33,117 bases of DNA from a virus, in the IMG/VR virus record IMGVR_UViG_3300042154_000539, positions 1-33,117 of that record. One strand, given 5' to 3'. Shown here piece by piece: positions 1 to 33,117 of this stretch. The notes beneath the pieces were generated by a model, which ran no database searches, had not been told where the DNA came from, and worked only from the letters and a program-made list of their open reading frames with translations. The position numbers and the translations under genes are program-made. Every line of letters begins with the position of its first letter. Position 1 is the stretch's first letter.

Positions 1-226
1 CTGAGCTAAAGTGACTGAATGTAAGCTACCGGGTTTTTGTTGCGTACTTTTTAGATTGCCTGTGTACTGATCACTCACGGTTGGAGTAGGGAGCCGTTGC
101 CCCCCCCCGGCTGGGTAGGCAATAACGAAGACCCGGAACCGTTGATGAGCTGCTCCGGCGTCGGAAGCTCGAACGCTATGCCATTTTGCGTCATACCCGA
201 TGTCGGCCAAGTCCCCGAGAACGGCT
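1..226. repeat. terminal repeat, left copy (circular closure)
   Basis: These 226 bases recur at 32890-33117. The only difference I see is the length of the C run, 9 here and 11 there. Joining the ends makes one continuous methyltransferase reading frame of 387 codons plus stop, so the repeat most simply reflects a circular or circularly permuted molecule that was read past its start. A genuine short direct terminal repeat inside a gene is less likely, but cannot be excluded from sequence alone. Confidence 0.93.
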
Positions 227-660
227 CCCAATGCTCTAAGAGCTGGTTGCCCGTTGAGCTTGTCCATAACTTCAGTTCCGTATTCCATTCCGCTACTTGC
301 TTTAGCACTTAGTAATCCCCTTACATTTTCTATAACTACTAATTTTGGTTTGATTATTGTTATTGCTTTATAAAACTCCGACCATAATCCAGAACGTGTC
401 CCGTCTTGTAATCCTGCTCGCTTACCAGCTAAAGATAAATCTTGACAGGGGAACCCTCCTGTAAGGATTTCTACTGATTCGACAGCTTCCCAGTCCACCT
501 TGCTAACGTCCCGATAATTCGGAACGCCGGGAAAGTTAGCCTCTAAGACTTTGCTAGGAGCGTCTTCCCATTCACAATGCCAAGCTACTTCTGCGCCTAA
601 TACCTTACTAACGGCTAGATCTAGCCCGCCGTATCCGCTAAATAAACTTCCTATTTTCAT
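1..660 (-). CDS. DNA cytosine-5 methyltransferase, N-terminal part (continues across the window junction)
   Basis: This is the first 220 codons of a C5 DNA methyltransferase, which transfers a methyl group from SAM to cytosine C5. The visible motifs are motif I SLFSGYGGLDLAV (residues 5-17), motif IV GGFPCQ with catalytic Cys72, motif VI ENV (111-113) and motif VIII QRFRVF (173-178). The start is ATG at 660, behind the ribosome site AAGGGGAGAA. The frame runs off position 1 and continues from 32889 to 32386, giving 387 aa in total. Residues 185-187 are three Gly codons from the nine-G run at 100-108, and nine keeps the frame open. It is the last gene before a group of small zinc proteins. Family assignment is secure; the target site is unknown. 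Confidence 0.95.
   Translation of the reverse strand, partial: MKIGSLFSGYGGLDLAVSKVLGAEVAWHCEWEDAPSKVLEANFPGVPNYRDVSKVDWEAVESVEILTGGFPCQDLSLAGKRAGLQDGTRSGLWSEFYKAITIIKPKLVVIENVRGLLSAKASSGMEYGTEVMDKLNGQPALRALGAVLGDLADIGYDAKWHSVRASDAGAAHQRFRVFVIAYPAGGGQRLPTPTVSDQYTGNLKSTQQKPGSLHSVTLAQ
100..108. repeat. poly-C/poly-G tract, 9 copies, inside the methyltransferase gene
   Basis: On the coding strand GCC is followed by nine G and then CAA CGG CTC, reading A-G-G-G-Q-R-L and keeping the C-terminal half in frame. The duplicate at 32989-32999 has eleven, which leads to a TGA 7 codons after the tract. Homopolymer G tracts in methyltransferase genes are classical slippage sites, but they are also classical sequencing-error sites. 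Confidence 0.9.
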
Positions 661-6009: not shown

Positions 6010-6279
6010 CTAAGACTTTTTGATGTGTTCCGGATTACAACAGTCCGAGTGGCCACAGTTTCGAGCGCCCGGAAGAACGGGCTGCCCTTCGTAGATCGGC
6101 TGGGTAAGAGTTTCGGGATCGAAGTCCCCCTGCCACGGTAGGCACTTAGTATTCCCGTACTTGACAATAAGAGATTGGCCCATTCTACAATCGGCGCACC
6201 GAACGCCCGTCTTGGGTTCGTCCAGCTTGACGCGCCAGATATGCCCGCAACGATTACAGATTGCCTCGTTCTCTTCCAC
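6010..6279 (-). CDS. zinc-binding protein with HNH-like C-terminus (paralogue of 31860-32216)
   Basis: This 89-aa protein has an N-terminal zinc ribbon (CNRCG at 8-12, CADCR at 28-32), a middle CLPWQGDFDPE, and an HNH/treble-clef-like end LPGARNCGHSDCCNPEHI. The whole pattern recurs in the 118-aa protein at 31860-32216. The chosen start is GTG at 6279, 12 bp after the upstream stop, with AAAGGG rather far upstream. It may bind nucleic acid; whether it cleaves is unknown. Confidence 0.75.
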   Translation of the reverse strand: MEENEAICNRCGHIWRVKLDEPKTGVRCADCRMGQSLIVKYGNTKCLPWQGDFDPETLTQPIYEGQPVLPGARNCGHSDCCNPEHIKKS

Positions 6280-7303: not shown

Positions 7304-7838
7304 TTATTTCCCTTTCCTTCGGCGGTTCTAATTCCGCTATTCGAACGTTATAGCAATTTATAGTCGGAGTCCAGCCGTTAGAATTATCTACCTGACTAGG
7401 GTTCCAAGCGGTAGCTATTTCCTCGAACCTTTCTAGCGAAATACTACCTAAAATAAATCCCTTACTAAACCGATTTATCTGGTCGGACTTACCGGAGCTT
7501 AGAAGGCTAATAAAAATAAAGTAATCGGGCCGTTGATGTTCGTGGTTATAGGCCGGAACCGTACAGTCGTAATGCGGTTGGGGGACTACGGTTCTTTCCT
7601 TGGTCTTAAACTCTAGAGTCTTCCATTCCCCGGCGACCTTAGCCCGGACGTCGTACCTAGTCGAGCAGATCTCTTCTAGCTCAAAGCCTAAGCCCCGTAG
7701 ATAATCCATTCCGATTAGTTCGCCTAAAGCTCCGACCTGACTAGCTTGTAGGCCACGTATAGAGCGTTCTAGCTCCCCTAGCTCTTCGGCCCTAGCTTGT
7801 GCGGCTTCTAGGTACTCTTCTAGATCTATTTCTAACAA
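7290..7838 (-). CDS. PD-(D/E)XK nuclease-like protein
   Basis: This 182-aa protein shows the elements of a restriction-type nuclease fold: GALGELIGMDYLRGLGFE with Glu40, Asp63 in STRYDVRAK, then EFK (76-78) as the E-x-K motif after a strand. A positively charged segment ERTVVPQPHYD follows. The start is TTG at 7838, chosen because AAAGGAAACC lies directly upstream. It might trim DNA or act in recombination or host DNA breakdown. The fold call is fairly firm; the substrate is unknown. Confidence 0.7.
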   Translation of the reverse strand: MLEIDLEEYLEAAQARAEELGELERSIRGLQASQVGALGELIGMDYLRGLGFELEEICSTRYDVRAKVAGEWKTLEFKTKERTVVPQPHYDCTVPAYNHEHQRPDYFIFISLLSSGKSDQINRFSKGFILGSISLERFEEIATAWNPSQVDNSNGWTPTINCYNVRIAELEPPKEREINATY

Positions 7839-21045: not shown

Positions 21046-22260
21046 CTATTCTACTGCGAAGGTATCCCGGAGAATCGGAAGCCAATACTTAGACCAGACC
21101 TTATCCACGTCAAAGTCAGAAGCAAAGTCGATAGCCGTTTGCGAGCGTCCTTTGCCGAGCTTATAAGCTTCTTCGAGCGCGGCAACGATAGAAGGCACGT
21201 TAGGGATTTGCCACCACGCGTCTTGCCCGCTGTCCCATTGTGGCTGTCCTCCGACTAGGAAAGAGTCTTCCGAAACTAGATCTTGCGTAGCTGCCCAGTT
21301 AGATCCGATAACTCGGGTTCCGCAAGCTTGGGCTTCGATAGTAGGAATTCCAAAACCTTCACCGTAGGAAGTCGCAAGTAGAACGTCCATTCCCGTATAG
21401 TAGCCCGCTAGGGTTTCTTGCTTTATTCCGTATTTATAGCTAACGGAGTTCGGAAAGGCTACGTCGTCTTTCTCTATTCCTAGAGCTTGTAAAAGGCTTA
21501 GAAGGTTCCAGCCGATACCGTTAGCCATTGGGTCTGTGTGGAGATAAAGCATAGCGTCCGGGTGCTTCTTCTTGAAAATCGAGAACGCAAGTAAGTTTTC
21601 CGAGAATGCTTTGCGGTGAACTAGACCGGAGCTTTTATTAGCAGCAACCATTCCCACTACGTAGCGATCTTTAGTTCCCATATGTTCTTCTACGGTCTGG
21701 CCCTCGATCTCGAACGTAGGCTTGATAGTTTTAGTATCTATTCCGTGGGGAGCGTATCGGCAAGCTATTCCCTTTTCTTCCATTTGCCTAACGCCGTGCG
21801 GTGCCATAGCTACCGGGGTGACGTTTTCTTTTCTTAGGAAGGTTTCGACTCTAGGCGGTAGGGTCACGTGGTCTAGGGGAACCCAACTAAGAATTGGGAA
21901 AGTATCGAAGAGCTTAGAAGTTAGAACCCACACGTCATAAAGGGTTATCATTACGTCTTTTTGATTTCGTCCAGCTGCGAAAGTTTTGTGATCGACCGGA
22001 GCGGTGTCGTTTGAATAAAGATCCATTCCGCGAGCGAAGTGCGGAATTTTTCCGTAAGGCGTATCAAGTTCGCGCTTGATTCCTTCTAGCCCATAGTTAG
22101 AAAGAGCAGCGACGTCGAAGCCGTGACGCTTTAGACGATCGACTAAGTAGCGAGCTTGCTGCCCGTAGCCCGTAGGTTGATCAGGAGAATTTGAGTAAAG
22201 GGAAACCGTTCCCTTGAACTGTTCGCGGTTAGCAGGGTTCTTGGATTTTGTAGGGTTCAT
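21046..22260 (-). CDS. GT4-type glycosyltransferase
   Basis: This 404-aa protein has the two-domain layout of GT-B enzymes. The N-terminal part includes GYGQQARYLVDRLKRHGFDV, and the C-terminal donor-binding motif is GEGFGIPTIEAQACGTRVIG (about residue 300-320). It lies between the capsid gene and the connector, so it may modify virion proteins, as some mycobacteriophage glycosyltransferases do, or act on the host surface. The ATG at 22260 has no purine-rich ribosome site (CTACTGTTTTTTT precedes it), and a strong terminator lies only 34 nt upstream, so its expression route is unclear. Confidence 0.85.
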   Translation of the reverse strand: MNPTKSKNPANREQFKGTVSLYSNSPDQPTGYGQQARYLVDRLKRHGFDVAALSNYGLEGIKRELDTPYGKIPHFARGMDLYSNDTAPVDHKTFAAGRNQKDVMITLYDVWVLTSKLFDTFPILSWVPLDHVTLPPRVETFLRKENVTPVAMAPHGVRQMEEKGIACRYAPHGIDTKTIKPTFEIEGQTVEEHMGTKDRYVVGMVAANKSSGLVHRKAFSENLLAFSIFKKKHPDAMLYLHTDPMANGIGWNLLSLLQALGIEKDDVAFPNSVSYKYGIKQETLAGYYTGMDVLLATSYGEGFGIPTIEAQACGTRVIGSNWAATQDLVSEDSFLVGGQPQWDSGQDAWWQIPNVPSIVAALEEAYKLGKGRSQTAIDFASDFDVDKVWSKYWLPILRDTFAVE

Positions 22261-23868: not shown

Positions 23869-25758
23869 TTATAGCCTCTTCATTAGTAGTTCGAGCTTCA
23901 TCTTCTTCAATTCTAGTGCCGTAAGCTCTTCGGAATTTTCTTCGGTCTGGGCTTCGTCCTGCGGTGTTAGTCGCTGGATTACCTTGGTTAGAAGTTCCGA
24001 CTGCTCCTTGGATAGATCCTTACCGTCTTCGATCGTAAGCATAGCGTCCGCTAGCTGGTCGGCGTCTACTTCTGCGCGGGTAGCTACTACGTCGAACGAA
24101 CGAACCGAAGCGGTTCCAGCGGTCTGCGAATATGCCGGAAAAGCAACGATCGAAACTTCGTGAATTCTTACGCTTCTAAGGGTTCTTTCGGTTCCGTCGG
24201 TGTTCCAAGTATCGCCGTTAGCTGGAACGGAGAATCCGAAGGACATAGCATTTACGTCGCCACGCTGTACTAGGGTACGAACGTCTTTTCCAAGTGTGGT
24301 TTCTGGTAGTACCGCCGTGACTCTTAGGCCGTAGTTATCCTCTTCGAGCTTTAGGGTTCCTGCTCGGGTAGATCCTAGAACGCTTCCGGTGTCGTGGTTC
24401 CATAGAAGCTTGATGTCGTTTCTAGCCTTTAGTGAACGCTTGAAAGCTCCCGGCGCGATTCTCTCGATAAACGGAAGTGGTTCGCTTGGGCTATTGAAGA
24501 CTGCTGCGTATCCGGTAAAGGTCATACCGTCGCCACCTTCTACGGCTCTTAGTTCGAACTGGACTTCGTTAGTTCGCTTTTCTATCTTTGCCATTTGCTC
24601 GCTCTCTTGGGAAATACTGGCGCGGTTTTCTTCTTCTAGTCTAGCAACAACGCCTTCAGCATACTTTAGCGTTCTACGTGCTGAAGCTTTACTAGGGCCA
24701 CTTCCCCATAGCAGGTGCGCTACTACTCCAGCGGAAGGATAGTTAGGAGAACTTGGGTTAGCGTCCGGGGAATCTAGATCTCCTAAGTGTCTAGCAATCC
24801 ACGCGCGAATTCTTACCCACTTATCGGCTGTAATGTTTCCCTCGGCCATAGCGCGAGCTTCTCGGATAGTTCTATCTACTAGACCGTCCCCGCCTTTTCC
24901 TTCGCGGTAATACTCCAGACCACGGCGGGCAGCAGCTCTCATATAAGCGGGAGCTTTTAGATTTACTTCCCTTTCTTCGTCTTCCGGTACGCTAGGAATT
25001 TCGTTCGGGTGAATAGCGGTAATTCCTAGACTTCTATAAGCCCTAAGAATGTCGTTATTATCGTCTATGGCGATCATTAGGTTATAGCTATTTAGTAGTT
25101 CGCTAGCGGTTGCGCGTTTGAACTCCGTGCTATTTAGATCTGCAGAAGGCTTCATAAGGAGCTGGTCGTACTCGAAGCCCTCTAGGTCTACTTCGGTTTC
25201 CGCTCTTTCTGACTCTAACCGTGCGGTAATGATAATGATTTCGGTCTCGTCGAAAGTATCTAGGTAATCTACTAGCTGTTGGTTTATCTGACCACCGCGA
25301 ATAATCGTGTTATCGACGTCGAGAATAATCGCCGGGGTTCCCTCTTCTCGATCTTCTTCGGAGTAGTCTTCTTCCATTTCGACTTCTTCGGAAATTTTCT
25401 CGGGTCTTGGAACTCGCTGAAGTCTAAAGATGTTCATAATCATTAGGCGGTCGGTGCTGTGGTAAACGTCGTCTTCTAGTTCGTAAACTTCTAGACCAGC
25501 TAGTTCGCCTTCGATCATTACTACTTCGGCCATAATCTTAGGGTTAGTTAGATCCCAACTAACATAATCCCCGACCTTTAGCTGCCCTACGGCTGCGCGT
25601 TCGCCGACGAATTCGGTTTCTTCGGCAAGGCTAATAGCTAACGCTTGGTCAATAGCAGATTCTTTAGAAGCGTGGCAGGCGATTAGTTCGCCGTCTTCTT
25701 TTACTACTGCCCAACTATTAGGACAGTCCGCCGATTTATCGGTTATGTAATATGGCAC
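23869..25758 (-). CDS. multidomain prohead protease with embedded HAD-like domain
   Basis: This 629-aa protein is about three times the usual length. Residues 1-45: CPNSWAVVK and ACHASKESA, a small module often seen at the head of phage proteases. 55-115: beta-rich module (VGDYVSW). 140-255: HAD-type domain with DVDNT (147-151), IITAR (176-180) and DDNND (232-236). 268-380: helical domain (AARRGLEYYREGKGGDG). 395-555: S78-type prohead protease with FTGYAAVFN, WNHD (His455), NAMSFGF (Ser506) and IHEVSIVAFP. 560-629: acidic helical tail. An internal ATG at 24594 (MAKIEKRTNEVQF) would give a normal-length protease. Confidence 0.88.
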   Translation of the reverse strand: MPYYITDKSADCPNSWAVVKEDGELIACHASKESAIDQALAISLAEETEFVGERAAVGQLKVGDYVSWDLTNPKIMAEVVMIEGELAGLEVYELEDDVYHSTDRLMIMNIFRLQRVPRPEKISEEVEMEEDYSEEDREEGTPAIILDVDNTIIRGGQINQQLVDYLDTFDETEIIIITARLESERAETEVDLEGFEYDQLLMKPSADLNSTEFKRATASELLNSYNLMIAIDDNNDILRAYRSLGITAIHPNEIPSVPEDEEREVNLKAPAYMRAAARRGLEYYREGKGGDGLVDRTIREARAMAEGNITADKWVRIRAWIARHLGDLDSPDANPSSPNYPSAGVVAHLLWGSGPSKASARRTLKYAEGVVARLEEENRASISQESEQMAKIEKRTNEVQFELRAVEGGDGMTFTGYAAVFNSPSEPLPFIERIAPGAFKRSLKARNDIKLLWNHDTGSVLGSTRAGTLKLEEDNYGLRVTAVLPETTLGKDVRTLVQRGDVNAMSFGFSVPANGDTWNTDGTERTLRSVRIHEVSIVAFPAYSQTAGTASVRSFDVVATRAEVDADQLADAMLTIEDGKDLSKEQSELLTKVIQRLTPQDEAQTEENSEELTALELKKMKLELLMKRL

Positions 25759-27521: not shown

Positions 27522-29045
27522 TTAGAAGAAGAAGTCGGGAACCATTTCTTCCATTCTACTACTGACCGCCCGGTCAAAAGCAATAACCGCTGCTACCGCT
27601 GCGTCGATCTTTCTAGGGCTGTGTCGGTTTTCCTTTACGATACGGATTCCTAAGTTGTCTATCTTCGTCACGGCGTTATCTAGGTGGCGGGTTAGAACCG
27701 GGCTTCCGTCGTGTTCGAGCGTTCCACCCGTGACCGAATCGTAGAATTTCGCACAAGCTTGAACCATTCGCTTCGGAGAAGTAGACGGCCATTCGACAAT
27801 GGGAACGCCTCTATCGGCTAGGACTTCCATAGAACGTTGCCACCTAAAGGGGTCGCAAGCTACTTCCCTAGTTTTAGGGTATTTCTGGACAAAGTTTAGG
27901 ATCGTTTCTTCTACTTCTTGAATGTCTACCCTCCACAGGTCGTCGTGTATCGTTAGATCCTTTTCCCATTCCTTTACTAGCCACAAGAAAGGCTTTTCCT
28001 CTTCGGACTTAGGAATAGTACAAGCGACCAGAACGGTACAGTCGCCGGAGAAGGATCCGTCGAAGCCTAAGATAATTTCGTCGTCGGGGCTAGGTTCCCG
28101 TTCGGTCTTTAGTTCGTCCCAGCTTCCGGCGGGTAGCCAAGCCGTCTGCGAGCTTACCCATTGGTTTAGACGCTTAGTTCGGAACTCCGCTTCCGGGGTT
28201 CGCTTTACTGCGCTTTCGAAGTCCGCTTTATCTACTAAGTCGTCGAAGGCGGGGTTAGCTAGTTCCCAGATTTTAGGGTCGCGGTGATCGGCTTCGTCTG
28301 GAGCTGCCCACCACGCCATAAAGAACGAAGGGTCGATAACTTCCCCGCGCGAAACCTTCTGTCCGTACTGGAATAGCGAATAGGCGATAGAGTCCCCGCC
28401 TGTCATATCCTTCTTTACACCTGCGGTCGTCACGGCGATAAGCTGCGCCATACTTCCACGGTTTCCCATAGCTAGGGACATAACATCAAATAGGGAGCGG
28501 TCTTTATGCGCGTGAAGTTCGTCAGCGATTACACGGTGCGGGTTATAGCCTTCTTTCGAATAGGCTTCCGCGGATAGGACTCGATAGACGGAATTAGTTT
28601 CTGGTACGAATAGAGCGTCCCGGTAAACCTTTACCATTTCGCTTAGTTCCGTAGACTCGACGATTCTCTTTGCTTCGGAGAATACGATTCGGGCCTGTTC
28701 CTTTTCTGCCGCGATCGAATAAACCTCTCCACCTTCTACGCCTTCAGCAAGTAAGGAATACAGGGCGAAGCTAACGGAAGATAGAGCGGACTTACCGTTC
28801 TTACGTGGCATTCCGATTAGGGCTGTTCTTGCTACTAGCCCGCCGTTTTCGTCCCGGGCGTAGACGTGGCGAATAAGGTCTTGTTGCCACGGTCGAAGCT
28901 CTAAGGCTTGCCCTACTCTTCCGGCGATTCCGTCCTTACCGATAGATCCGAACGTTTCGGAAAACTCGATAACTATTTCCCCGTCGCCTTGTTCGATAGC
29001 CTTTTCTGGAACCGGGGTTAGCCATAGCGGGGGCCAACTACTCAC
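27522..29045 (-). CDS. terL: terminase large subunit
   Basis: This is a 507-aa DNA-packaging motor. The ATPase has Walker A GMPRKNGKS (78-86) and Walker B RVIADE (171-176), then the coupling segment TTAGVKKDM. The nuclease has ILGFDGSFSGD, ACDPFRW and a final RKIDAAVAAVIAFD. The start is GTG at 29045, overlapping the small terminase gene, with GAAGGC upstream. The terminase type cannot be settled by eye, but circular closure of the assembly would suit headful packaging. Confidence 0.93.
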   Translation of the reverse strand: MSSWPPLWLTPVPEKAIEQGDGEIVIEFSETFGSIGKDGIAGRVGQALELRPWQQDLIRHVYARDENGGLVARTALIGMPRKNGKSALSSVSFALYSLLAEGVEGGEVYSIAAEKEQARIVFSEAKRIVESTELSEMVKVYRDALFVPETNSVYRVLSAEAYSKEGYNPHRVIADELHAHKDRSLFDVMSLAMGNRGSMAQLIAVTTAGVKKDMTGGDSIAYSLFQYGQKVSRGEVIDPSFFMAWWAAPDEADHRDPKIWELANPAFDDLVDKADFESAVKRTPEAEFRTKRLNQWVSSQTAWLPAGSWDELKTEREPSPDDEIILGFDGSFSGDCTVLVACTIPKSEEEKPFLWLVKEWEKDLTIHDDLWRVDIQEVEETILNFVQKYPKTREVACDPFRWQRSMEVLADRGVPIVEWPSTSPKRMVQACAKFYDSVTGGTLEHDGSPVLTRHLDNAVTKIDNLGIRIVKENRHSPRKIDAAVAAVIAFDRAVSSRMEEMVPDFFF

Positions 29046-29487
29046 GGTTAGCCTTCTTAGACATTAGCTCTTCTAGCTTAGACATTTTCTTTACTTCGGC
29101 CACGCCTAAGCGGGAGCGGTCGGACGGGGTAAATCCTAGAAGCCCTAGATTGGAAACTATCTGGCGGTCGATTTCTCTAAGTCCCCGTCGGTCTTTCGGG
29201 TTGTTATCGGTCATAACCCGGACGCGCAAGTTCCAGCGTTCGTCTATCATTTCGCAAGTCATTAGAAGAAGCTCTAGGTCGGTATTAGGGCTAATCCAAT
29301 TTATACCCGATTCCCACACGCGATCCCATAATTCCTGCCCGTATTTTAGGAGTGGACGTGCGGGTTCTGGTACTTTCGTTGCTTGTGGAATTAGCATTAT
29401 TGCCGATTGCTCGGGCAGGGGGCGTTTGCCGGGATTGCCGATTAGTCGCTTCTGCTCTATCGGCTTAGTCGGTCTTCCTGCTGGCAT
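29038..29487 (-). CDS. terS: terminase small subunit (P27-like)
   Basis: This 149-aa protein begins MPAGRPTKPIEQKRLIGNPG, typical of P27-family small terminases, and ends with LGLLGFTPSDRSRLGVAEVK, also family-typical. It recognises phage DNA for packaging. AAGGGAAGCAA precedes the ATG at 29487, after an A/T run. Confidence 0.9.
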   Translation of the reverse strand: MPAGRPTKPIEQKRLIGNPGKRPLPEQSAIMLIPQATKVPEPARPLLKYGQELWDRVWESGINWISPNTDLELLLMTCEMIDERWNLRVRVMTDNNPKDRRGLREIDRQIVSNLGLLGFTPSDRSRLGVAEVKKMSKLEELMSKKANRE

Positions 29488-29540: not shown

Positions 29541-30431
29541 CTAATTACTGCTAAGTCTAAGTTTCTTCTCGACCGGAACCTTCGTAAGTTTGACCTTACT
29601 AAAGTCCCGTGGTGTATAGCTGTCGTCCTTGACCAGCCCTAGAGTATCGAAGACGTTGTAGTTTACGTAATGGTGCCAACGTCCGTACTTCCAGACTAGC
29701 TCTGTAATGTCGGGGTGCATATCTACTAACATTCGGGACTTAGGTAAAGTTCCCTCTTCGGCGTAGAAAGCTTCCGTGTTGCCACCCGTTAGGGTCTGGG
29801 TAGTTAGCTTGTACTGAAGGAAAGAATTGAACTGGACGGTACTCCAACCCGCTTTTAACATACGGATACTTAGATCCGTGTCTTCGTTATAGCGACCTCT
29901 CCACCTAAAGGGGACTTCGTTCCGGATTAGATTACAAGAGTAGATCCGGGTATTCATAAAGAACGGGGGTCTTTTCTCTCGGGACGGAATAAACATCCAG
30001 TAGTGCGGGCCTGCCATTCCTAGATTCTTATACCGCTGCGCAAAGTCTTCCATAGCTAGGAAGATAAAGCCGTCCCCGACTTGGATCCGCTGGTTATCGT
30101 GGAACCGCGCGAATAGCTTTATGTTGTCGTCCATAACCCAATGCCACTTATAGCCTTCGGAGATCGAGTGTTCCCAAGCAAAGTTTCGAGCTGCTCCCGG
30201 GCCTTTAGATTTTGTATAACCTAAATCGTCAAAGGTGTCATAATCGTCTTGGAATTTTTTATCTAATACCAGCAACTTAGACTTAGGGAAATGCTCCGCG
30301 TAATCCTTGTATTGTTGCTCTTCGATTACTAGCCGATACGGAACCTTGATTAGATCTAAGAATCTCGGAGTCGTCGCGTTCTGCGCTCTAGACTTCGACG
30401 GAATGTAAATCGGGAATTCCGGGTTTATCAT
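29541..30431 (-). CDS. TET/JBP-associated-type glycosyltransferase (TAGT-like)
   Basis: This 296-aa protein has the features of the TAGT family: FPIYIPSKSRAQNATTPRFL (6-25), YRLVIEEQQYKDY (32-44), KGPGAARNFAWE (76-87), WVMDDNIKLF with the Asp-Asp-Asn metal/donor motif (98-107), and RYNEDTDLSIRML later. Known relatives occur in phage DNA-hypermodification clusters and are thought to glycosylate oxidised 5-methylcytosine. Here it sits beside a ParB-like gene, and the phage also encodes a cytosine methyltransferase, but no TET/JBP oxygenase is seen. The ATG at 30431 overlaps the ParB-like stop (ATGA). Confidence 0.8.
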   Translation of the reverse strand: MINPEFPIYIPSKSRAQNATTPRFLDLIKVPYRLVIEEQQYKDYAEHFPKSKLLVLDKKFQDDYDTFDDLGYTKSKGPGAARNFAWEHSISEGYKWHWVMDDNIKLFARFHDNQRIQVGDGFIFLAMEDFAQRYKNLGMAGPHYWMFIPSREKRPPFFMNTRIYSCNLIRNEVPFRWRGRYNEDTDLSIRMLKAGWSTVQFNSFLQYKLTTQTLTGGNTEAFYAEEGTLPKSRMLVDMHPDITELVWKYGRWHHYVNYNVFDTLGLVKDDSYTPRDFSKVKLTKVPVEKKLRLSSN

Positions 30432-31063
30432 TCTTCGACTACGTATTGCTCGTTTATGTTAGAACCTATTAGCCCGTCGGATTCGGGATACCAGAAAGTT
30501 CTAGCCTTCTTCTTATTTAGTACTCTAAAGAATTCGTCCGCGTCCGCTTCGGTTTGGAAGTGGACTATACAGTGGTACTCCCCGTTTTTCTTTTCATTAC
30601 CGAACTCGGGCATACCGACCCACTCCTTTAGAGCGTCCGTAGATCCGGATACCTGCGCGTTGCTAATACGGCTAAAGTCCTCTATCGCGGTTTCGGTAAA
30701 ACCTAAAGCCTTTAGATCGAAGTCTGCTTCCTTTAGTTCTACTAGCTGCTCGGTAAGAATTACCCGGTCGAACTCGGATAGCTCCGCCGTCTGGTTATCG
30801 GCGATAGCGAACGCGCGAATCATTTCGGGAGTCCAGTCCTTCGGTACTCGGACGACTTCGATTTCTAACCAGCCTAGTTTCTTCGCAGCTTCTAGGGTTC
30901 CGTTCCCGGCTACGACTTGACCAGCTTCGGTAATTACGATCGGCTTCCGTTGCCCGAATTTCTTTAGGCTTTCGGCCAGAATGCGCAGGTTATCGTCGTC
31001 GTGTTTACGCGCGTTCTTCGGGTCGGGCGTTAGTTCTTTTATCGGTAGGGTTTCGAGCTTCAT
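30428..31063 (-). CDS. ParB-like nuclease-domain protein
   Basis: This is 211 aa. The ParB N-terminal fold covers about 1-100, with PDPKNARKH (13-21), GQRKPIVI and VVAGNGTLEAAKKLG (50-64), then AIADNQTAELSEFD. The C-terminal domain (EYHCIVHFQTEADADEFFRV) is typical of phage ParB-like proteins linked to DNA methylases. It may guide modification or packaging through site recognition. GAAAGGACGCT precedes the ATG at 31063. It is the first gene of the late block. Confidence 0.85.
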   Translation of the reverse strand: MKLETLPIKELTPDPKNARKHDDDNLRILAESLKKFGQRKPIVITEAGQVVAGNGTLEAAKKLGWLEIEVVRVPKDWTPEMIRAFAIADNQTAELSEFDRVILTEQLVELKEADFDLKALGFTETAIEDFSRISNAQVSGSTDALKEWVGMPEFGNEKKNGEYHCIVHFQTEADADEFFRVLNKKKARTFWYPESDGLIGSNINEQYVVEE

Positions 31064-31732: not shown

Positions 31733-31863
31733 TAGTCTTTCTTTTCTTTATACCTTGTTAGGCAGCTTAGGCATAGGGATAACGGGGACGACTTAGGCCC
31801 GAGAATCATTCGTAAGGTGTGGTTATTCTCGCAGACTAACGTAATGTCCCTAACTTCCTTCAC
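31732..31863 (-). CDS. 43-aa small probable zinc protein
   Basis: This GTG-started frame (MKEVRDITLVCENNHTLRMI) carries Cys11, His15, Cys31 and Cys34 (CLSC), enough for one zinc site. It is locked between its neighbours by GTGA and TAATG overlaps. Function is unknown. Confidence 0.6.
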   Translation of the reverse strand: MKEVRDITLVCENNHTLRMILGPKSSPLSLCLSCLTRYKEKKD

Positions 31864-32216
31864 GCCGATAGCTCTCGCATAAAGTCTTGTAGTTCGCTAA
31901 GTCTTCCCGTTCTATAACTAATGTCGTTTCTTTCCAGCTCTAGCGGTCTAAGCTCTCGAACTATGTGCGCCTTATTTACGCAGTCCTTATGGCCACAGGT
32001 TCTTAGTCCGGGAAGATACGGCTTTAGGTGTTTATCTATTGGGTTTAGATCTTCGTCTACTTCTCCCCACCACGGACGGCAAACAGTACCGCTGTACTTT
32101 ATCTCTCGGGCTGGGTTAGAACGGCAGTCGAAGCAACGTCCGTCATAGATTCCCCTAGATTGTCTTTTCTCTATTACCTTGTCGCTTAGTTCCATACCGC
32201 AGCGATTACAGTCCAT
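31860..32216 (-). CDS. zinc-binding protein with HNH-like end (paralogue of 6010-6279)
   Basis: This 118-aa protein has CNRCG (3-7), CFDCR (28-32), VCRPWWGEVDEDLNP (45-59) and LPGLRTCGHKDCVNKAHI, the same order and spacing as the protein at 6010-6279. A helical C-terminus is added. AGAAGGGATTAGTA precedes the ATG at 32216. Two copies in such a small genome suggest a useful, perhaps nucleic-acid-binding, module. Confidence 0.75.
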   Translation of the reverse strand: MDCNRCGMELSDKVIEKRQSRGIYDGRCFDCRSNPAREIKYSGTVCRPWWGEVDEDLNPIDKHLKPYLPGLRTCGHKDCVNKAHIVRELRPLELERNDISYRTGRLSELQDFMRELSA

Positions 32217-32389: not shown

Positions 32390-33117
32390 TTTTTTATTCT
32401 TTCTAGCAAGTTATCGTCTTCCAATAGTAGCCGTAAAGCCAGTTCCGCTTGTTGTGGTACTACTCCATTACCCGCTAGCTTTAGTTCGTCTGTTCTCTTT
32501 AGTCCTAACCCAGTTATCCAGCCTTCGGGTAATCCCATAAGCCATTCAGTAAATAAAGAGCTTAGTTGCTCTCTTCCTTCTTTTCCGTCAGGCTTAGTTG
32601 GTGCTGGAGCTGGTCTGCCTACAATCTTTTCCCACCGCTTTATAGCCGATTCGAATCTTCCCCAATTCGTAGCCCCAAGCATTACTTCTACTTCGATCCT
32701 GCTTTTTGGGTTCCCGTTAGTTATTTCTTTTCTTGTTGGCCCGTTAGCCATACTTACCCTTGTAGTTGGAAGCAGCTCTACTTCTACTTTCAGGCGTTTC
32801 TTGGGATTGTTATTTACAACTTCCCCTCGTGCCGCTCCTCGATTATCGCTAACTGTGGGAGTAGGGAATAAATCTTCTTTTAGAAATACCTGAGCTAAAG
32901 TGACTGAATGTAAGCTACCGGGTTTTTGTTGCGTACTTTTTAGATTGCCTGTGTACTGATCACTCACGGTTGGAGTAGGGAGCCGTTGCCCCCCCCCCCG
33001 GCTGGGTAGGCAATAACGAAGACCCGGAACCGTTGATGAGCTGCTCCGGCGTCGGAAGCTCGAACGCTATGCCATTTTGCGTCATACCCGATGTCGGCCA
33101 AGTCCCCGAGAACGGCT
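32386..33117 (-). CDS. DNA cytosine-5 methyltransferase, C-terminal part (frame broken at the 11-G tract in this copy)
   Basis: Below position 32890 this is the rest of the enzyme begun at 660: the target-recognition region (two LPTPTVSD/FPTPTVSD-like turns and KEGREQLSSLF), and motifs IX-X ending in LAGNGVVPQQAELALRLLL, with GNGVVP at about residues 360-365 of the whole protein. Bases 32890-33117 repeat the start of the window; there the G tract is 11 long, which shifts the frame and gives an early TGA. Using the 9-G copy, the joined gene is 387 codons. Confidence 0.9.
32890..33117. repeat. terminal repeat, right copy
   Basis: This matches 1-226 base for base as far as I can read, except for the C run at 32989-32999 (11 instead of 9). 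See the left copy. Confidence 0.93.

What the first reader, a model, noticed from the sequence alone, without database searches (positions are those of the whole stretch)
29541..31063. Possible DNA hypermodification set without a visible TET oxygenase
A ParB-like protein, a TAGT-like glycosyltransferase (IYIPSK, DDN and EDTD motifs) and a cytosine-5 methyltransferase occur in one small genome. In known phages these accompany TET/JBP oxygenases that convert 5mC to 5hmC before glycosylation. No protein here shows a recognisable TET/JBP His-x-Asp...His pattern. Either the sugar goes on another base, an unrecognised protein does the oxidation, or the step uses the host.
Basis: partly seen in the sequence, partly recalled or inferred. 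Interest (0 to 1): 0.8.

Follow-up and report, generated by a model that had tools for sequence, protein, structure and literature searches.

The report
TET-free phage glycosyltransferase with obligate partner
A small phage carries a sugar-attaching enzyme of a family named for the TET oxidases it was first found beside, but this enzyme belongs to a separate, widespread branch that works without TET, always travels with one small undescribed protein domain instead, and whose target (most likely the phage's DNA) is unknown.

Summary
In detail: 29541-30431(-) is a TAGT glycosyltransferase (Pfam PF20691, E=1.7e-43), 30428-31063(-) starts with a ParB_N domain, a cytosine-5 methyltransferase (C5-MTase) spans the record's ends, and no TET or other 2OG oxygenase is found. 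The proposed pathway (5mC, oxidation, glycosylation) is only partly supported. The C5-MTase is not a partner: a phage with 90%-identical TAGT lacks it at that place, and 3 of 50 records searched have one. TET absence is normal for this TAGT branch: 0 of 58 phage records and 0 of 9 cultured lysogen hosts have TET. The constant partner is an unnamed ~70-residue domain ('MPEF', motif W.[GD]MPEF...TKSIWYP), here the C-terminus of the 'ParB' protein. Elsewhere it is a separate small gene or is fused to TAGT. Every untruncated viral TAGT of the branch has it adjacent, and no known family matches it. Across 16 diverse phage contigs only TAGT and MPEF are shared by all. TET phages use a distant TAGT without MPEF; one contig carries both modules, each with its own TAGT. 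Best reading: a self-contained, translationally coupled MPEF-TAGT module, probably glycosylating phage DNA without phage-encoded oxidation. The acceptor is unknown; protein glycosylation remains possible.

The parts
29541..30431 (-). TAGT-family glycosyltransferase (296 aa, pI 9.1); DDN and EDTD active-site motifs intact
   Evidence: PF20691 E=1.7e-43; phrog_842 E=4.1e-48; all invariant columns of a 67-row family alignment include the window row; motifs and pI
30431..30643 (-). MPEF domain: residues 141-211 of the ParB-like protein (KEWVGMPEF ... VHF ... FF ... TFWYP); the constant partner of this TAGT branch; no family in Pfam, PHROGs or NCBIfam
   Evidence: own HMM built from standalone relatives plus the window C-terminus, E=2.3e-23 in the window; no library hit; pairing counts
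30797..31060 (-). ParB_N (ParB/Srx fold) domain, N-terminal part of the same 211-aa protein (gene 30428-31063); the usual GHGR motif reads GNGT here
   Evidence: PF02195 E=5.7e-6; Foldseek to CDP-bound ParB E=6.3e-9; matches the N-terminus of phage DNA methyltransferase families, phrog_498 E=3.4e-36 and PDLC03229 E=3.5e-22
30428..30431 (-). ATGA overlap: stop of the ParB-MPEF gene and start of the TAGT gene (suggests translational coupling)
   Evidence: in 130 of 141 loci with separate genes the two overlap or abut within 3 bases
29038..29487 (-). Terminase small subunit directly downstream (context, not part of the enzyme module)
   Evidence: PF25673 Terminase_7 E=5e-8 among the window proteins; terminase genes follow TAGT on the same strand in 25 of 61 lineages with enough downstream sequence
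27522..29045 (-). Terminase large subunit (context)
   Evidence: TerL_nuclease E=3e-18 and TerL_ATPase E=6.9e-17; conserved order in L001, L002, L003, L005, L006
1..660 (-). N-terminal 220 aa of the C5-MTase (PCQ motif), cut by the record end; judged NOT part of the module
   Evidence: PF00145 E=4.6e-37; absent between exonuclease and zinc-ribbon gene in L003
32386..33117 (-). C-terminal part of the same C5-MTase at the other end of the record; NOT part of the module
   Evidence: phrog_1008 E=3.6e-41; end repeat 226/228 with poly-C 9 versus 11

Best explanation
The window encodes a two-part glycosylation module: a basic GT-A type glycosyltransferase (TAGT) and a small acidic partner domain (MPEF) which here rides on a ParB_N domain. 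SHOWN: family membership; obligate, tightly coupled pairing of MPEF with this TAGT branch; repeated fusion and fission between them; absence of any shared oxidase, TET or C5-MTase. INFERRED: MPEF binds TAGT and positions its acceptor or keeps it active, and ParB_N tethers the complex to DNA. The enzyme then moves a sugar from a host nucleotide-sugar onto phage DNA late in infection, near packaging, protecting it from host nucleases, without a phage-encoded oxidation step. The acceptor is therefore either an ordinary base or backbone group, or something the host always supplies.
For: Pairing: all untruncated TAGTs of this branch in the viral set have MPEF fused or adjacent (159 of 164 by first ORF calling; three of the five exceptions resolved, the other two are copies of TET-linked P12024L). 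Reverse search by MPEF motif: 73 of 76 directly next to TAGT, two more with TAGT one gene on. Genome set: 41 of 49, 46. Architectures: ParB_N-MPEF in 35 lineages, standalone in 19, fused in 13; on the tree 'fused' needs 6 changes, at least 4 forced. TET 0 of 58 phage records excluding the TET control, 0 of 9 cultured lysogen hosts; C5-MTase 3 of 50. Only TAGT and MPEF are common to 16 phages. Contig L222 has MPEF-TAGT and, on the other strand, TET with its own distant TAGT. Link to DNA: ParB_N matches DNA methyltransferase N-termini; ParBc proteins accompany phage cytosine carboxymethyltransferases (PMC12783734); T2/T6 TAGT acts on DNA (PMC13216743); TAGT pI median 9.26, over 8 in 91%.
Against: No biochemistry; acceptor and donor are unknown. 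The known DNA-acting TAGT (T6) is very distant from this branch (branch lengths of 10 and 2.66). GT-A structural neighbours such as COLGALT1 act on proteins, and from memory the TAGT homologue GREB1 is reported to glycosylate a protein. Known DNA glycosyltransferases need a hydroxyl on the base; direct glycosylation of an unmodified base in DNA has no precedent I know of. About half the lineages lack ParB_N. Large phages of the branch carry thymidylate-synthase homologues that might make 5hmdU.
Confidence: 0.5

Rival explanations
1. Protein glycosylation: MPEF-TAGT puts a sugar on a phage or host protein (for example terminase, portal or a host polymerase or nuclease), and MPEF is the substrate-recognition subunit or even the acceptor itself.
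For: No hydroxylated-base source in the small phages; nearest solved GT-A folds include protein and hydroxylysine glycosyltransferases; terminase genes often next door; separate MPEF gene in 19 lineages.
Against: ParB_N is the most frequent carrier of MPEF and is otherwise fused to phage DNA methyltransferases. The only functionally known phage TAGTs act on DNA. No other phage protein family is shared across the phages, so a phage-protein acceptor would have to differ from phage to phage.
Confidence: 0.27
2. Classical TET-like pathway with a hidden oxidase: the C5-MTase makes 5mC, an unrecognised phage or host enzyme makes 5hmC, and TAGT glycosylates it.
For: C5-MTase present in the window; TAGT plus TET plus MTase is a known gene set, as in P12024L.
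Against: C5-MTase in only 3 of 50 records and absent at its place in close relative L003. TET absent from phages and from nine lysogen genomes. No other shared gene. The TET-type TAGT is a distant separate branch that in L222 coexists as its own unit.
Confidence: 0.08
3. Pool-level modification: the acceptor is 5-hydroxymethyl-pyrimidine put in during replication by a thymidylate-synthase-type hydroxymethylase, with MPEF-TAGT adding the sugar.
For: T6 encodes its TAGT (ggt) next to dCMP hydroxymethylase. Aeh1, 65, PTm1, POP12, Kuja and henriette carry thymidylate-synthase homologues.
Against: The main homologues are not gp42-like and, where the motif could be read, keep the TS-type Asn; only a second PTm1 paralogue resembles gp42 weakly. 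The window, both 47-kb Vibrio phages and all other contigs tested lack any member.
Confidence: 0.1
4. Non-modifying role: MPEF-TAGT acts on a small molecule, nucleotide sugar or cell-surface glycan, for example to exclude other phages.
For: FkbM methyltransferase next to or fused with MPEF in L014 and L022, sugar epimerase near fused forms in 5 lineages.
Against: ParB_N association, basic enzyme, late-operon position beside terminase.
Confidence: 0.05

Closest known systems
T2/T6 beta-glucosyl-HMC-alpha-glucosyltransferase (ggt, PF20691)
   Same: Same Pfam family by published annotation; phage-encoded; works without TET
   Different: Adds a second glucose to alpha-glucosyl-5hmC made via dCMP hydroxymethylase (PMC13216743, PMC13390438); no MPEF; very distant on the tree
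TET-linked TAGT of Nonlabens phage P12024L and relatives
   Same: Same Pfam family, operon with a methyltransferase
   Different: Sits next to Tet_JBP (PF12851), about 24% identical, no MPEF in any of 19 TET loci
Fused MPEF-TAGT proteins of Aeromonas phages Aeh1, phiAS5 and 65, Vibrio phages 1.124.O, 1.076.O and Kuja, Tenacibaculum PTm1 (annotated hypothetical or 'beta-glucosyl-HMC-alpha-glucosyltransferase')
   Same: Same TAGT branch (47-57% identical to the window) with MPEF at the N-terminus
   Different: MPEF fused to TAGT, no ParB_N; the inherited 'HMC' annotation has no support from gene content
CmoX/CmoY carboxymethylcytosine system (PMC12783734)
   Same: Phage DNA hypermodification without TET; ParBc-domain proteins often nearby
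   Different: Built on a C5-MTase homologue using Cx-SAM (SPPC motif); the window C5-MTase has the ordinary PCQ motif and no CmoA-type partner was seen
ParB_N-DNA methyltransferase fusions of phages (phrog_498)
   Same: N-terminal ParB_N of the same type (E=3.4e-36)
   Different: There the catalytic part is a methyltransferase; here it is MPEF next to a glycosyltransferase

Membership tests
TAGT (PF20691) | Profile match over the domain | tested here: met
   E=1.7e-43, 149 bits against a cut-off of 27.5, model positions 1-201 of 205
TAGT (PF20691) | GT-A fold with conserved acidic motifs | tested here: met
   DDN and EDTD present; model of relative L062 (pTM 0.79) matches viral TAGT models (TM 0.91 to the target) and GT-A enzymes; the window protein itself was not folded
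TET/JBP-linked hypermodification (5mC or T to 5hm-base to sugar) | TET/JBP oxygenase in the same phage | tested here: not met
   0 in the window and 0 of 58 phage records of this branch, positive control works; lysogen hosts 0 of 9
TET/JBP-linked hypermodification (5mC or T to 5hm-base to sugar) | Accompanying C5-MTase as a conserved partner | tested here: not met
   Present in the window, but in only 3 of 50 records; absent from L003
T4/T6-type HMC glucosylation | dCMP hydroxymethylase (thymidylate-synthase family) in the phage | tested here: not met
   PF00303 absent from the window and small relatives; homologues of large relatives are mostly TS-like
CmoX carboxymethylcytosine system | C5-MTase with SPPC motif plus CmoA | tested here: not met
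   Window motif is FPCQ; no CmoA-type protein among the Pfam matches shown for window proteins
ParB/Srx (PF02195) | Profile and fold match of the N-terminal domain | tested here: met
   E=5.7e-6, Foldseek E=6.3e-9 to ParB-CDP; motif GHGR reads GNGT in the window
MPEF-TAGT pair (defined here) | MPEF domain fused to or immediately next to TAGT | tested here: met
   Window MPEF E=2.3e-23, ATGA overlap with TAGT
DNA glycosyltransferase | Glycosylated nucleoside in virion DNA | not testable with these tools
   Needs LC-MS of virion DNA

The most novel reading that the evidence does not exclude
MPEF-TAGT glycosylates ordinary, unoxidised phage DNA (an exocyclic amine or other native group), with MPEF as an essential acceptor-positioning subunit: a one-step DNA glycosylation chemistry without precedent, spread over at least 70 phage lineages and hosts of many phyla.
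Probability: 0.2. Interest if true: 0.9.

Novelty: new variant of a known kind. Interest (0 to 1): 0.62.

Why it matters
Known phage DNA sugars are put on a hydroxyl made beforehand by TET or a pyrimidine hydroxymethylase-type enzyme. Here a large, widespread TAGT branch has no such supplier yet is always paired with one small unnamed domain that none of the family libraries searched contains. The pairing says that TET does not define the activity of this enzyme family, that the database label 'beta-glucosyl-HMC-alpha-glucosyltransferase' on these genes is unsupported, and that a two-gene cassette can be cloned and tested directly. If the target is DNA, it would be a new route to glycosylated DNA and a likely counter to host restriction and CRISPR; if protein, a new phage-borne protein glycosylation system.

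Tried and rejected
(1) Hidden oxidase among window proteins: Pfam on 51 window proteins, Tet_JBP, PF13640 and PF13532 gave nothing. (2) C5-MTase as CmoX: rejected on motif. (3) ParB_N as the real partner: rejected, MPEF is the constant part. (4) Apparent MPEF-less TAGTs: ORF-calling artefacts in most cases, resolved by stop-to-stop search; only L242 (E=0.036), a contig-end fragment (L235) and the second copy of a tandem (L236) stay open. (5) Fold of MPEF: AlphaFold gave low confidence for it in both models; no solved relative by sequence, so its fold is unknown. (6) A mixed alignment with MPEF-only rows misaligned them and was not used for folding. (7) Literature: only three of the papers found were useful on TAGT/PF20691 or on ParB beside phage modification; the 2013 paper that defined TAGT is not in the library, so I could not check whether it noted the small domain.

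Full report
WHAT IS THERE. The window is a 33,117-base IMG/VR virus record. Its two ends repeat each other over 226 of 228 bases, so the genome is probably complete; the repeat lies inside a C5-MTase gene and its copies differ only in a poly-C run, 9 versus 11. A WhiB protein points to an actinobacterial host (with general knowledge). TAGT membership is beyond doubt (PF20691 E=1.7e-43).

NO TET. Tet_JBP (PF12851) is absent from the window, from 49 further viral contigs with TAGT relatives and from eight named phages with this TAGT, while the same search finds it in Nonlabens phage P12024L. In one search the built-in control genomes did not ring; supplies the positive control. 2OG-FeII families PF13640 and PF13532 are absent from 23 records. 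Nine cultured bacterial genomes carrying such a module, among them Chryseobacterium, Erwinia, Xenophilus, Rhodovulum and Marivivens, also lack Tet_JBP. Many viral contigs are fragments, so single absences are weak; the pattern is not.

THE C5-MTASE IS NOT A PARTNER. In contig L003, whose TAGT is 90% and TerL 94% identical to the window's, the exonuclease gene ends at 7434 and the zinc-ribbon gene starts at about 7733, leaving no room for the MTase that lies between them in the window; a PF00145 search of that contig is negative. Over 50 records PF00145 is found in three, including the window.

THE CONSTANT PARTNER. Residues 141-211 of the ParB protein form a small domain, called MPEF here for its motif. 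In other contigs it appears as a standalone gene of about 80 aa just before TAGT, or fused to the N-terminus of TAGT. By lineage (75% TAGT identity, 70 lineages): ParB_N-MPEF in 35, standalone in 19, fused in 13. With first-pass ORF calling, 159 of 164 untruncated TAGTs in the viral set had MPEF fused or upstream; of the five exceptions, two are copies of TET-type P12024L and the other three have MPEF in overlooked frames. Starting instead from the MPEF motif, 73 of 76 loci had TAGT as the next gene and two more (L116, L117) had it one gene further on. In a third set from bacterial genomes found by TAGT patterns, 41 of 49 untruncated TAGTs had MPEF, and 46. MPEF and TAGT overlap or abut in 130 of 141 separate-gene cases. 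No Pfam, PHROG or NCBIfam family covers MPEF. Its conserved positions are mostly aromatic or hydrophobic plus T.KTK, which looks like a binding module rather than a catalytic site.

TREE. In a tree of 90 TAGT domains the MPEF branch is separated from TET-type and T6-type TAGT by a long branch (2.66 changes per site, support 92/94). The label 'fused' needs six changes, at least four forced by well-supported branches, so fusion or fission happened repeatedly. TET-type rows and T6 are long branches and their exact place is unsure. None of 19 TET loci has MPEF, and seven carry the distant TAGT type. One contig, L222 (Winogradskyella MAG), holds both units on opposite strands: MPEF-TAGT, and TET with its own distant TAGT (PF12851 E=8.9e-24; PF20691 E=5.3e-14). 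This is a natural experiment suggesting that the two are distinct modules.

NOTHING ELSE IS SHARED. Comparing all ORFs of 16 phage contigs from different lineages, TAGT is in 16 of 16 and MPEF in 14 by single-sequence search, with fused divergent forms seen by HMM in the other two. The next families are ParB_N at 8 and a replication protein and portal at 7. If oxidation were needed, no shared phage gene supplies it.

STRUCTURE. The model of fused protein L062 (pTM 0.79) is a GT-A fold: close named viral models are TAGT-domain proteins (TM to target 0.91 for A0A6J5QVW5) and solved neighbours include COLGALT1 and chondroitin polymerase. The ParB_N part matches CDP-bound ParB. MPEF itself was modelled with low confidence in both jobs, so how it touches TAGT is not known.

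MECHANISM. Shown: a two-part, tightly coupled module. Inferred: MPEF binds and aims TAGT, ParB_N brings it to DNA, and the sugar goes on phage DNA late in infection. Reasons for DNA: ParB_N otherwise heads phage DNA methyltransferases and ParBc proteins accompany phage cytosine carboxymethyltransferases (PMC12783734); the family member of known function, in T2 and T6, acts on glucosylated hydroxymethylcytosine in DNA (PMC13216743, PMC13390438); the enzyme is basic (median pI 9.26); terminase genes follow in 25 of 61 lineages. Against: no source of a hydroxylated base in the small phages, protein-acting GT-A neighbours, and no experiment. Large phages of the branch have thymidylate-synthase homologues; most keep the TS-type Asn and are not gp42-like, but dUMP hydroxymethylases could look the same, so for them a 5hmdU acceptor stays possible.

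NOVELTY. The enzyme family is known; the branch-wide obligate partner and the independence from TET, C5-MTase and hydroxymethylase were not found in the papers I could search. The 2013 paper that named TAGT was not available, so part of this may have been noted there.

LIMITS. MPEF and TAGT profiles were built from the fetched loci; only the best 80 of 322 TAGT and 442 MPEF matches were read; contig ends truncate some loci.

Noticed in passing
window 100-108 and 32989-32999: Poly-C run of 9 versus 11 in the two copies of the end repeat, inside the C5-MTase gene; 9 C gives a full-length frame, 11 C breaks it. Could be assembly error or a phase-variable tract.
   Followed up: partly
window 75-308 (-): An out-of-frame ORF inside the C5-MTase gene matches actinophage 'DNA methyltransferase' genes by tblastn (E=2e-8); perhaps only a shadow of the conserved main frame, not settled.
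   Followed up: partly
window 21046-22260 (-): A second, unrelated GT4-type glycosyltransferase (PF13692 E=2.2e-9) next to the capsid gene, also present in L002 and L030; possibly for virion proteins.
   Followed up: no
window 6010-6279 and 31860-32216 (-): Two related zinc-ribbon proteins with an HNH-like CGH..C.N..H motif; both also found in L003.
   Followed up: partly
L004 2459-4117; L095 693-2411; L197; NC_048827 (Kuja): Tandem or duplicated TAGT domains, suggesting two-sugar products in some phages.
   Followed up: no
L014 1471-2142; L022 8547-10001: FkbM-type methyltransferase between MPEF and TAGT or fused to ParB_N-MPEF, suggesting that the transferred sugar may be methylated.
   Followed up: partly
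L222 533-3409: One contig carries both MPEF-TAGT and a TET with its own distant TAGT.
   Followed up: yes
window 23869-25758 (-): A 629-aa protein that joins an HAD-like stretch (DVDNTIIRGG; HAD/PNKP-type Pfam matches probably come from it) to a prohead protease.
   Followed up: no
NC_005260, NC_014636, NC_015251, NC_049340, NC_048827: RefSeq label 'beta-glucosyl-HMC-alpha-glucosyltransferase' on these TAGTs is not supported by gene content: no T4-type dCMP hydroxymethylase was recognised in the four of these phages tested (NC_014636 not tested), apart from a weak second paralogue in PTm1.
   Followed up: partly
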